From Streptomyces sp. NBC_01276 (GTDB taxonomy: Bacteria > Actinomycetota > Actinomycetes > Streptomycetales > Streptomycetaceae): 64,000 nt of DNA. The stretch spans positions 3,472,001-3,536,000 of the forward strand of contig NZ_CP108442.1 of NCBI RefSeq assembly GCF_041435355.1. Direction: 5' to 3'. The position numbers were made by a program, and so were the translations under genes. Of the stretch, positions 23,912 to 56,088 are shown one piece after another (the first letter of the stretch is position 1; the number at the start of each line of letters is the position of its first letter). A model generated the notes under the pieces. It saw only the letters and a list, made by a program, of their open reading frames with translations, was not told where the DNA came from and made no database searches.

Positions 23912-23961
23912 AAGCAGAATTGCCCCCTCCGCTTATTAGCGGAGGGGGCAATTCTGCTTTT
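23912..23961. terminator. strong bidirectional terminator
   Basis: AAGCAGAATTGCCCCCTCCG and onward to 23933 pairs with 23938-23959 around a TATT loop, giving a 22-bp perfect stem with TTTT on the plus side. It terminates the minus-strand ThrC-like/MoaD operon. Confidence 0.92.
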
Positions 23962-23968
23962 CGGGGTC

Positions 23969-24244
23969 TCAGCCGCCCGCGACGGCCGGAATGATCGAGA
24001 CGCCGGCGCCGTCCGGCGTCGCCGCCTGCAGTCCGCCCTCGAAGCGCACGTCGTCGTCGTTGACGTAGACGTTCACGAAGCGGCGCAGCTTGCCCTGGTC
24101 GTCCAGGACGCGCGCGGCGATGCCCGGGTGGTTCTTCTCCAGGGACTCGATGACCTCGGCCAGGGTCGAGCCCTCGGCCGGGACCTCGGCGACGCCGCCG
24201 GTGTAGGTGCGCAGGATGGTGGGGATGCGGACGTTGACGCTCAT
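23969..24244 (-). CDS. MoaD/ThiS-family sulfur-carrier protein
   Basis: A 91-residue ubiquitin-like protein ending in AVAGG, the diglycine that is adenylated and converted to a thiocarboxylate in sulfur carriers (ThiS, MoaD, CysO). The fold order VRIPTILRTYTGG, LAEVIESLEKNHPG, RFVNVYVNDDDVR and VSIIPAVAGG is typical, and closest in style to mycobacterial CysO. It starts 34 bp after the ThrC-like gene, in the same riboswitch-controlled operon, so it probably delivers sulfur to the partner enzyme. The needed ThiF/MoeZ activator and any Mec-like protease are not in this window. Confidence 0.92.
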   Translation of the reverse strand: MSVNVRIPTILRTYTGGVAEVPAEGSTLAEVIESLEKNHPGIAARVLDDQGKLRRFVNVYVNDDDVRFEGGLQAATPDGAGVSIIPAVAGG

Positions 24245-24278
24245 GGCGCTACCGCCTTTCCGGGAGTCGTGGGAAGGG

Positions 24279-25568
24279 TCAGGCCAGGCCGGCGGCGCGG
24301 AACGCGTCCAGGCTCGGGCGGATGGTGGCGGTCTGACCGCTGTCCGCGGCCACCGCCTCCAGGGTCTTGAGGCCGTCACCGGTGTTCAGGATCACGGTGG
24401 TCAGCGCCGGGTCGAGCTGCCCGTTCTCGATGAGCTTCTTCGTCACGCCGACGGTCACGCCGCCCGCGGTCTCGGCGAAGATGCCCTCGGTCTGCGCCAG
24501 GATCTTGATCGCCTCGACGACCTGGGTGTCGTCGACGTCCTCGACGTAGCCACCGGTGCGGCGGGCGATGTCCAGGACGTACGGGCCGTCCGCCGGGTTG
24601 CCGATGGCCAGCGACTTGGCGATGGTGTCCGGCTTCTGCGGGCGGACCACGTCGTGGCCGGCCTTGAAGGCGGTGGAGACCGGGGAGCAGCCCTCGGCCT
24701 GGGCGCCGAAGATCTTGTACGGCTTGTCCTCGACCAGGCCGAGCTTGATCAGCTCCTGCAGGCCCTTGTCGATCTTCGTCAGCTGGGAGCCGGACGCGAT
24801 CGGGATGACGATCTGGTCGGGCAGCCGCCAGCCGAGCTGCTCGCAGATCTCGTACGCCAGGGTCTTGGAGCCCTCGCCGTAGTACGGGCGGAGGTTGACG
24901 TTGACGAAGCCCCAGCCCTCGCCCAGCGGGTCGCCGATGAGCTCGGAGCAGAAGCGGTTGACGTCGTCGTAGTTGCCCTCGATGCCGACGAGGTCGCCAC
25001 CGTAGACACCGGCCATGACGACCTTGCCCTGCTCCAGGTCGTGCGGGATGAACACGCAGGAGCGGAAGCCGGCGCGGGCGGCCGCGGCACCGACGGCGCC
25101 GGCCAGGTTGCCGGTGGAGGAGCAGGACAGGGTGGTGAAGCCGAAGGCGCGGGCCGCCTCGACGGCGATGGCCACGACGCGGTCCTTGAAGGAGTGCGTC
25201 GGGTTGCCGGAGTCGTCCTTGACGTACAGCTTGCCGGTGACGCCCAGCTCCTTGGCCAGGTTCCGGGCGTCCACGAGCTTGGTGAAGCCGGGGTTCAGGC
25301 TGGGCTTGGAGGCCACGTCGGCGGGGACGGGCAGCAGCGGGGCGTAGCGCCAGATGTTGTTCGGGCCGGCCTCGATCGCGGCGCGCAGCGCCTCGGGGTC
25401 GCCGAGCGGCAGGTCGTAGGCGACTTCCAGCGGGCCGAAGCACTCGACGCACGCGAAGATCGGGCCGAGCTCGAAGCGGGTGCCGCACTCGCGACAGGAG
25501 AGGCCGGTGGCGGGTCCGAGATCGACGGAACCGAGGTCGGTAGAGGTGGCGACAGTCTGTGCAGCCAT
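24279..25568 (-). CDS. thrC: threonine synthase-family PLP enzyme; possible O-phosphohomoserine-dependent homocysteine synthase
   Basis: A 429-residue fold-type II PLP enzyme. The PLP lysine is in NPTHSFKDR, the phosphate loop in SSTGNLAGAVGA, and two CxxC pairs (CRECG near residue 25, CVECF near 41) form an N-terminal zinc knuckle seen in a subset of threonine synthases. Homology alone gives threonine synthase. Two features point elsewhere: a SAM riboswitch abuts its ribosome-binding site, and a diglycine sulfur carrier follows in the operon. I recall recent work describing a Streptomyces ThrC paralogue (MetM) that makes homocysteine from O-phosphohomoserine with such a carrier; I cannot verify it here. 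The start at ATG 25568 is used because longer frames begin inside the riboswitch. Confidence 0.9.
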   Translation of the reverse strand: MAAQTVATSTDLGSVDLGPATGLSCRECGTRFELGPIFACVECFGPLEVAYDLPLGDPEALRAAIEAGPNNIWRYAPLLPVPADVASKPSLNPGFTKLVDARNLAKELGVTGKLYVKDDSGNPTHSFKDRVVAIAVEAARAFGFTTLSCSSTGNLAGAVGAAAARAGFRSCVFIPHDLEQGKVVMAGVYGGDLVGIEGNYDDVNRFCSELIGDPLGEGWGFVNVNLRPYYGEGSKTLAYEICEQLGWRLPDQIVIPIASGSQLTKIDKGLQELIKLGLVEDKPYKIFGAQAEGCSPVSTAFKAGHDVVRPQKPDTIAKSLAIGNPADGPYVLDIARRTGGYVEDVDDTQVVEAIKILAQTEGIFAETAGGVTVGVTKKLIENGQLDPALTTVILNTGDGLKTLEAVAADSGQTATIRPSLDAFRAAGLA

Positions 25569-25587
25569 GACGGCGAGGCCCTTTCTC

Positions 25588-25743
25588 CTCATCTTCCCCA
25601 TGGCGCACTTCGCCATGAGACGGAATTGGCACCTTCCCTAGCCGGGGACCTCGCGGGGGTGCGTGTGAAAACGCATCGCGAGAACCGACTGGAGGGTTGC
25701 CGGGGCTTCAACGGGCCGTGTCCCTCTGCCCCTCTGGATGAGC
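25588..25743 (-). promoter_or_regulatory. SAM-I (S-box) riboswitch
   Basis: On the minus strand the element opens with CTCATCC-AGAGGGGCAGAGGGA, continues GGCCCGTTGAAGCCCCGGCA-ACC, then AAGGTGCCAATTCC, and closes with GATGAG. These are the conserved SAM-I blocks in the correct order. P1 is CTCATC (25743-25738) paired with GATGAG (25593-25588). GGAGAAAGG, the likely Shine-Dalgarno, directly follows the 3' side of P1, 20 bases before the ATG at 25568, suggesting control at translation initiation. Confidence 0.92.
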
Positions 25744-25930
25744 GGTATGGCACCGGCACACGCGCTCTGAGGCGCGCCGGTGCGTTTGTGCGCGGGGACC
25801 CCGGCATGCCGTGGTCCGTCGCGTTGTTCAAGACTGTAACCGAAGGGCAGGGCGGTTGAGACAGCCGTCCGAACCGCGAGATGGATCGCATATCGGCCGA
25901 TATCGCCGAGGGCCACCGAGGAACCAGGGA

Positions 25931-56024: not shown

Positions 56025-56040
56025 GCTGGACTAGACCTTC
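56025..56040. promoter_or_regulatory. dre-like operator upstream of msiK
   Basis: GCTGGACTAGACCTTC, with the same GGACTAGACC core as upstream of nagK. It lies about 50 bp before the msiK ATG. Confidence 0.75.
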
Positions 56041-56088
56041 CACTCGGATCGTCCGGCACGTTCCTGCCGGTAGAAGGGATTCACCACC

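What the first reader, a model, noticed from the sequence alone, without database searches (positions are those of the whole stretch)
23969..25743. SAM-riboswitch-controlled ThrC-like enzyme paired with a diglycine sulfur carrier: likely sulfur assimilation, not threonine synthesis
Three elements form one minus-strand unit: a SAM-I riboswitch, a threonine-synthase-like PLP enzyme with an N-terminal CxxC/CxxC knuckle, and a MoaD/ThiS protein ending GG. A SAM off-switch makes little sense on an ordinary threonine synthase, but fits an enzyme making homocysteine from O-phosphohomoserine using a carrier thiocarboxylate. I recall a recent report of such a ThrC paralogue (MetM) in Streptomyces, which I cannot verify. 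Standard annotation would call this gene thrC and miss the pathway.
Basis: partly seen in the sequence, partly recalled or inferred. Interest (0 to 1): 0.85.

Follow-up and report, generated by a model that had tools for sequence, protein, structure and literature searches.

The report
SAM-controlled homocysteine synthase and sulfur carrier
A Streptomyces gene pair that databases call threonine synthase plus a small sulfur-carrier protein is very likely the recently described MetM/MetO route to homocysteine and methionine, and relatives with the same altered active site turn up in many other groups of microbes under the same probably wrong name.

Summary
One minus-strand unit holds a SAM-I riboswitch (25744-25586), a ThrC-like PLP enzyme (25568-24279) and a diglycine carrier (24244-23969), closed by a 22-bp inverted repeat. 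It corresponds to metM-metO of Streptomyces albulus (Hasebe et al. 2024, seen only through a citing paper), so the system is already known.

The genome has a separate hom-thrC-thrB operon; no MetX or MetA was detected. In 61 Streptomyces genomes the enzyme is in 61; one SAM-I aptamer each was found in 60, always 2-81 nt upstream.

Added here: an active-site signature in 150 of 150 MetM-type proteins and 0 of 22 threonine synthases; 80 loci in 12 phyla, 76 with an adjacent carrier; recurring NIL, MoeB and JAMM neighbours; one relative under a T-box read as Met; presence in Aquificota, where a 2018 paper flagged a missing homocysteine route.

Against an exclusive methionine role: recombinant Microcystis 'ThrC', 51.6% identical to MetM, reportedly makes threonine.

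The parts
25586..25744 (-). SAM-I (S-box) riboswitch aptamer
   Evidence: Rfam RF00162, 75.5 bits, model 1-108 complete; only one in the genome
25580..25593 (-). 3' strand of P1 (25593-25588, GAUGAG) abutting a likely Shine-Dalgarno stretch AGAAAGG (25586-25580)
   Evidence: read; GAAGATGAGGAGAAAGG is printed in 22 of 25 loci (22 of the 23 Streptomyces loci, 21 genomes; the other, L019, is printed out of range); P1 pairing CUCAUC/GAUGAG is in the predicted fold. Role as ribosome binding site is inferred
24279..25568 (-). metM-type gene: ThrC-like fold-II PLP enzyme, 429 aa (includes stop)
   Evidence: PALP, TIGR00260; groups with 69 other MetM-type proteins apart from 22 ThrC, SH-aLRT 99
25440..25496 (-). 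N-terminal CxxC...CxxC knuckle (C25, C28, C40, C43)
   Evidence: cysteines conserved in 150 of 150 MetM-type proteins; region absent from the 22 ThrC rows
25185..25187 (-). Lys128, aligned with Lys61 of T. thermophilus threonine synthase (PLP lysine, recalled)
   Evidence: alignment
23969..24244 (-). metO-type gene: ThiS/MoaD-fold sulfur carrier, 91 aa, ends in Gly-Gly (includes stop)
   Evidence: Pfam ThiS, PDB relatives
23912..23959 (.). perfect inverted repeat, 22-nt arms, 4-nt loop; likely terminator of the unit
   Evidence: terminator role inferred

Best explanation
This is a metM-metO operon. MetO is charged at its C-terminal glycine as a thiocarboxylate, probably by the cell's MoeZ/MoeB-type activating enzyme. 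MetM, a PLP enzyme descended from threonine synthase, takes O-phosphohomoserine from the threonine branch, eliminates phosphate and lets sulfur from MetO attack C-gamma, giving homocysteine, which is methylated to methionine. When S-adenosylmethionine is plentiful it binds the aptamer, stabilises P1 beside the ribosome binding site and lowers expression. Shown here: anatomy, riboswitch identity, conserved order, a separate threonine operon, MetX/MetA not detected, a rebuilt active site. From the literature (seen through a citing paper): that MetM is a homocysteine synthase with a riboswitch and a neighbouring metO in S. albulus. Inferred: thiocarboxylate charging, gamma-replacement, translational control.
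For: Separate hom-thrC-thrB operon. Sole SAM-I in the genome; one per genome in 60 of 61 Streptomyces, always same contig and strand, 2-81 nt upstream of MetM in 60 of 60 (G001 lacks it but its MetM is cut by a contig end). No MetX above 25 bits and no MetA in this genome; over 61 genomes near-complete MetX (E<1e-80) in 16, partial in 3, MetA in 1. In 296 Actinomycetota, 105 of 108 MetM-positive genomes carry two or more thrC-family genes (MetM counted) against 14 of 188 MetM-negative ones. SAM-I upstream in 41 of 60 Actinomycetota loci searched and a T-box upstream in one more, specifier read as AUG. Carrier adjacent in 57 of 70 Actinomycetota loci and 76 of 80 named loci. Threonine synthase residues T88, N157, R160 (T. 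thermophilus numbers) are L, R, Y in 150 of 150 MetM-type proteins and unchanged in 22 of 22 ThrC. Literature passages.
Against: The primary paper could not be read. PMC12172450 reports that recombinant Microcystis 'ThrC' (51.6% identical to S. albulus MetM) makes threonine from O-phosphohomoserine with Michaelis-Menten kinetics, deaminates threonine, gave only an unidentified peak with sulfide, and methionine did not rise although ThrC was highly expressed. One genome, G332 (99% complete), has the MetM-type gene as its only thrC-family match. 18 of 150 loci lacked an adjacent carrier. This genome also encodes a cystathionine gamma-synthase-like protein (675 bits, cut-off 513). The leader as a whole does not fold better than shuffles (z -1.30, 17 of 200 as good).
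Confidence: 0.93

Rival explanations
1. It is a second threonine synthase (or a synthase/deaminase) placed under SAM control to divert homoserine when methionine is low; the carrier is unrelated cargo.
For: Standard models call it thrC above cut-off. A MetM relative from Microcystis reportedly has threonine synthase and deaminase activity in vitro.
Against: A SAM-off switch on threonine synthesis has no clear logic. Residues kept in 22 of 22 threonine synthases are replaced in 150 of 150 MetM-type proteins. A carrier is next door in 132 of 150 loci. One relative has a T-box read as Met-specific.
Confidence: 0.04
2. The enzyme makes homocysteine but takes free sulfide or another carrier (such as CysO); MetO serves a different sulfur pathway and is only co-regulated.
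For: 18 of 150 MetM-type loci lacked an adjacent carrier, including two of three Aquificota; this genome has a second carrier in a JAMM-cysO-cysM-like operon.
Against: The carrier is adjacent in 132 of 150 loci over many phyla; in Nitrospirota the pair sits beside MoeB and JAMM genes, the rest of a carrier system.
Confidence: 0.1
3. The main methionine route in this genome is transsulfuration, with the cystathionine gamma-synthase-like protein using O-phosphohomoserine as in plants; the MetM unit is auxiliary.
For: Cystathionine gamma-synthase-like L008 and gamma-lyase-like L010 score over their NCBIfam cut-offs.
Against: No SAM-I elsewhere in the genome; no acyl-homoserine maker detected; these enzymes may serve reverse transsulfuration.
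Confidence: 0.07

Closest known systems
MetM/MetO homocysteine synthesis of Streptomyces albulus (Hasebe et al. 2024, Appl Environ Microbiol 90:e01247-24; not held, known from passages of PMC12172450)
   Same: ThrC-like enzyme, neighbouring sulfur-carrier gene, upstream SAM riboswitch, Streptomyces; in each of 61 Streptomyces genomes one protein matched at E<=1e-100
   Different: Nothing found in this locus; the S. albulus sequence itself was not compared
[quoted passage not shown] cited in PMC5764234 and PMC6225789, passages)
   Same: Carrier thiocarboxylate as sulfur donor for homocysteine
   Different: Recalled: uses O-acetylhomoserine and a MetY-type enzyme, not a ThrC-type enzyme and O-phosphohomoserine
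CysO-CysM-Mec cysteine synthesis (M. tuberculosis; mentioned in PMC6225789)
   Same: Close carrier relative (59% identity to the genome's own CysO-type protein); fold-II PLP partner
   Different: Makes cysteine; a separate JAMM-carrier-cysteine synthase operon is present in this genome
Canonical threonine synthase ThrC
   Same: PLP fold, PLP lysine, substrate O-phosphohomoserine (for MetM from the literature)
   Different: Lacks the knuckle; keeps T88, N157, R160 that MetM-type proteins replace

Membership tests
MetM/MetO | ThrC-like protein distinct from the genome's own threonine-operon ThrC | tested here: met
   hom-thrC-thrB elsewhere; tree split SH-aLRT 99, though rows were chosen by similarity to MetM
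MetM/MetO | sulfur-carrier gene next door, ending in Gly-Gly | tested here: met
   window 24244-23969
MetM/MetO | upstream SAM riboswitch (in Streptomyces) | tested here: met
   60 of 60 assessable Streptomyces genomes
MetM/MetO | sequence identity to the characterised S. albulus proteins | not tested
   sequence not to hand; names are hidden in the Streptomyces genome draw
MetM/MetO | homocysteine from O-phosphohomoserine with carrier thiocarboxylate | not testable with these tools
   needs purified proteins
Canonical threonine synthase (ThrC) | residues T88, S155, N157, R160, N188 (T. thermophilus numbers) kept in all 22 ThrC rows | tested here: not met
   window has L155, N225, R227, Y230, S259; their role in phosphate binding is recalled
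Canonical threonine synthase (ThrC) | NCBIfam TIGR00260 over its cut-off | tested here: met
   267 of 167 bits; the model does not separate the two groups
SAM-I riboswitch | RF00162 over gathering score, full model | tested here: met

The most novel reading that the evidence does not exclude
MetM is a widespread, misnamed homocysteine synthase family in at least 12 phyla, recognisable by STGN-L and R..Y in place of STGN-T and N..R. Outside Actinomycetota it often travels with a NIL-domain protein (sometimes fused to the carrier), MoeB and a JAMM protease, making a complete carrier system, with NIL a candidate methionine sensor or sulfur-transfer subunit. It supplies the homocysteine route reported missing in Aquifex and Acidimicrobium relatives, and the Microcystis 'threonine synthase/deaminase' is really MetM, so threonine toxicity there is methionine starvation.
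Probability: 0.55. Interest if true: 0.65.

Novelty: already known. Interest (0 to 1): 0.4.

Why it matters
It confirms that a gene annotated as threonine synthase in Streptomyces is very likely a methionine gene, which matters for metabolic models, auxotrophy predictions and antibiotic producers that need SAM. The signature gives annotators a simple rule to separate MetM from ThrC. The same rule offers a testable answer to a gap stated in 2018 (PMC5764234, passage): how Aquifex and Acidimicrobium relatives make homocysteine; and it suggests a re-reading of threonine toxicity in bloom-forming cyanobacteria.

Tried and rejected
Rejected: that this is the only ThrC of the genome. Rejected: that the riboswitch is a chance match (75.5 bits, and its position repeats in 60 of 60 genomes). 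Rejected as decisive: overall leader fold energy (z -1.30) and the NCBIfam thrC call (it scores both groups). The 500-bit cut-off of the MetX model was useless, since 0 of 14 control genomes pass it; E-values were used instead.

Led nowhere: the primary MetM paper is not held; a search for papers on T. thermophilus threonine synthase residues gave none with T88, so the roles of T88, S155, R160 and N188 in binding the substrate phosphate are recalled. No structure was predicted. L133 has a T-box, but downstream of MetM, so it is not counted. The link between carrier tails after GG and a JAMM gene (12 of 15 against 22 of 56, Fisher p 0.008; 5 of 76 carriers left out as undetermined) is confounded by descent, since 13 of 17 JAMM loci are Nitrospirota.

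Limits: 54 of 80 named loci and 60 of 62 loci L041-L102 were searched for RNA families. Many named loci are MAGs and may be misbinned. MetA was not searched in the 24 genomes. The CysM-like count may include other PALP enzymes.

Full report
What is there. On the minus strand the window carries a SAM-I aptamer at 25744-25586 (RF00162, 75.5 bits), then 17 nt, then a 429-aa PLP enzyme at 25568-24279, then 34 nt, then a 91-aa ThiS-fold carrier ending Gly-Gly at 24244-23969, then a perfect 22-nt inverted repeat at 23912-23959. The aptamer is the only SAM-I in the genome. The conserved stretch GAAGATGAGGAGAAAGG joins the P1 3' strand to a likely ribosome binding site; it is printed in 22 of the 23 Streptomyces loci (21 genomes; L019 is printed out of range). 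This fits control of translation, which is inferred; the whole leader does not fold better than shuffled sequence.

The genome has a separate hom-thrC-thrB operon. Its ThrC matches a solved threonine synthase at 496 bits (2d1f); the window protein's best is 178 bits (2zsj). A third, 370-aa ThrC-like protein scores below all cut-offs shown. A second carrier, 59% identical, lies in a JAMM-carrier-cysteine synthase operon. MetX gives at most 25 bits and MetA nothing. Cystathionine gamma-synthase-like and gamma-lyase-like proteins are present, so transsulfuration is not excluded.

Streptomyces. In a draw of 61 genomes, MetM matched at E<=1e-100 in 61. SAM-I was found exactly once in 60; the other genome's MetM is cut by a contig end. 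In 60 of 60 the aptamer lies on the same contig and strand, 2-81 nt upstream, median 17.5. Near-complete MetX (E<1e-80) occurs in 16 of 61, partial in 3, MetA in 1.

Actinomycetota. In 296 genomes, 108 have a MetM-type match at E<=1e-70. Of these, 105 have two or more TIGR00260 matches, MetM counted; of the 188 others, 14 do, 165 have one and 9 none. The three exceptions are G117 and G207 (partial MetM matches) and G332, 99% complete, whose sole match is MetM-type with SAM-I and carrier (L044). Of 70 loci read, 57 have an adjacent carrier. Of 60 searched, 41 have SAM-I on the same strand, from 23 nt inside to 263 nt before the matched start; one of these is Streptomyces. One further locus, L083, has a T-box upstream; aligned to the Rfam consensus its specifier reads AUG by a recalled rule. 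L083 also has a sulfite reductase-type gene after the carrier.

Active site. Among 70 Actinomycetota MetM-type proteins and 80 from other loci, against 22 threonine synthases (20 from these genomes plus aligned parts of 1uim and 2d1f), the PLP lysine and S84, N87 (T. thermophilus numbers) are kept by all. T88 is Leu, N157 Arg, R160 Tyr and Q164 Ser in 150 of 150; S155 is Asn in 146; N188 is Ser in 140 and Gly in 10. ThrC keep T88, S155, N157, R160, Q164 and N188 in 22 of 22. I recall T88, S155, R160 and N188 as ligands of the substrate phosphate; one search found no held paper to confirm it. The tree separates 70 MetM from 22 ThrC with SH-aLRT 99; since rows were picked by likeness to MetM this is partly by construction.

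Other phyla. A scan of named genomes, capped at the best 80 of 585 relatives, gave loci in 12 phyla by record title: Nitrospirota 24, Chloroflexota 17, Actinomycetota 12, Cyanobacteriota 11 and eight others, one archaeal. A carrier is adjacent in 75 of 80 under a strict rule and 76 under a wider one. On the same strand within the stretch held, 50 of 80 have a NIL-domain gene, 28 a MoeB/ThiF gene, 17 a JAMM gene and 6 a TusA gene (examples confirmed by Pfam); one carrier-NIL fusion (L165) is confirmed by Pfam and L177 looks the same. SAM-I was upstream in 8 of 54 searched and in none of 11 cyanobacteria. In 24 of these genomes, 24 have two or more thrC-family matches and 17 have no MetX match at E<=1e-20, the three Aquificota among them.

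Literature. Passages of PMC12172450 state that Hasebe et al. 2024 identified MetM in Streptomyces, that S. albulus metM has a SAM riboswitch, and that Microcystis ThrC is 51.6% identical to it. The same paper reports threonine synthase and deaminase activity for that protein, no clear homocysteine with sulfide, and no methionine rise; this stands against an exclusive MetM role. It also reports that threonine feeding induces that gene and its carrier neighbour, lowers methionine and SAM, and that methionine reverses the induction, which would equally fit a MetM starved of O-phosphohomoserine. PMC5764234 (passages) states that Aquifex aeolicus, Pyrolobus fumarii and Acidimicrobium ferrooxidans lack all homocysteine routes known in 2018; MetM-type genes were found here in a MAG titled Aquifex aeolicus, in other Aquificaceae and in Acidimicrobiales, though in two of three Aquificota without an adjacent carrier. 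Pyrolobus was not seen.

Verdict. The unit is very likely metM-metO, already described. What may be new (searches in a library of openly licensed papers showed no report, and the primary paper could not be read) is the residue signature, the breadth with NIL/MoeB/JAMM partners, the T-box case and the Aquificota link.

Noticed in passing
L007 (own genome C1:4855366-4858635): The genome's second carrier, in a JAMM-carrier-cysteine synthase operon, ends in GGSK rather than GG, so it may need trimming by the JAMM protein.
   Followed up: partly
L044 (G332): A 99% complete genome whose only TIGR00260 match is the MetM-type gene, with SAM-I and carrier; how it makes threonine is unexplained.
   Followed up: no
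L127, L130, L126: Order carrier - cysteine synthase-like - MoeB - MetM - MetO - NIL - MoeB - JAMM: two carrier systems side by side (MetO in L127 not listed among ORFs but found by the carrier search).
   Followed up: partly
L165 5291-5803: Carrier fused to a NIL domain in one ORF (Pfam ThiS and NIL).
   Followed up: partly
L128, L144: Two of three Aquificota MetM-type loci have no adjacent carrier.
   Followed up: no
L083 carrier: The carrier ORF ends AWG with a run of phenylalanines, possibly a sequence error.
   Followed up: no
L133 5705-6131: T-box leader downstream of MetM, and a second thrC-family gene upstream on the same contig.
   Followed up: no
own genome L004: A third ThrC-like protein of 370 aa with an N-terminal CxxC motif, of unknown role.
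   Followed up: no
window 56028-56085: msiK RNA motif, 53 bits.
   Followed up: no
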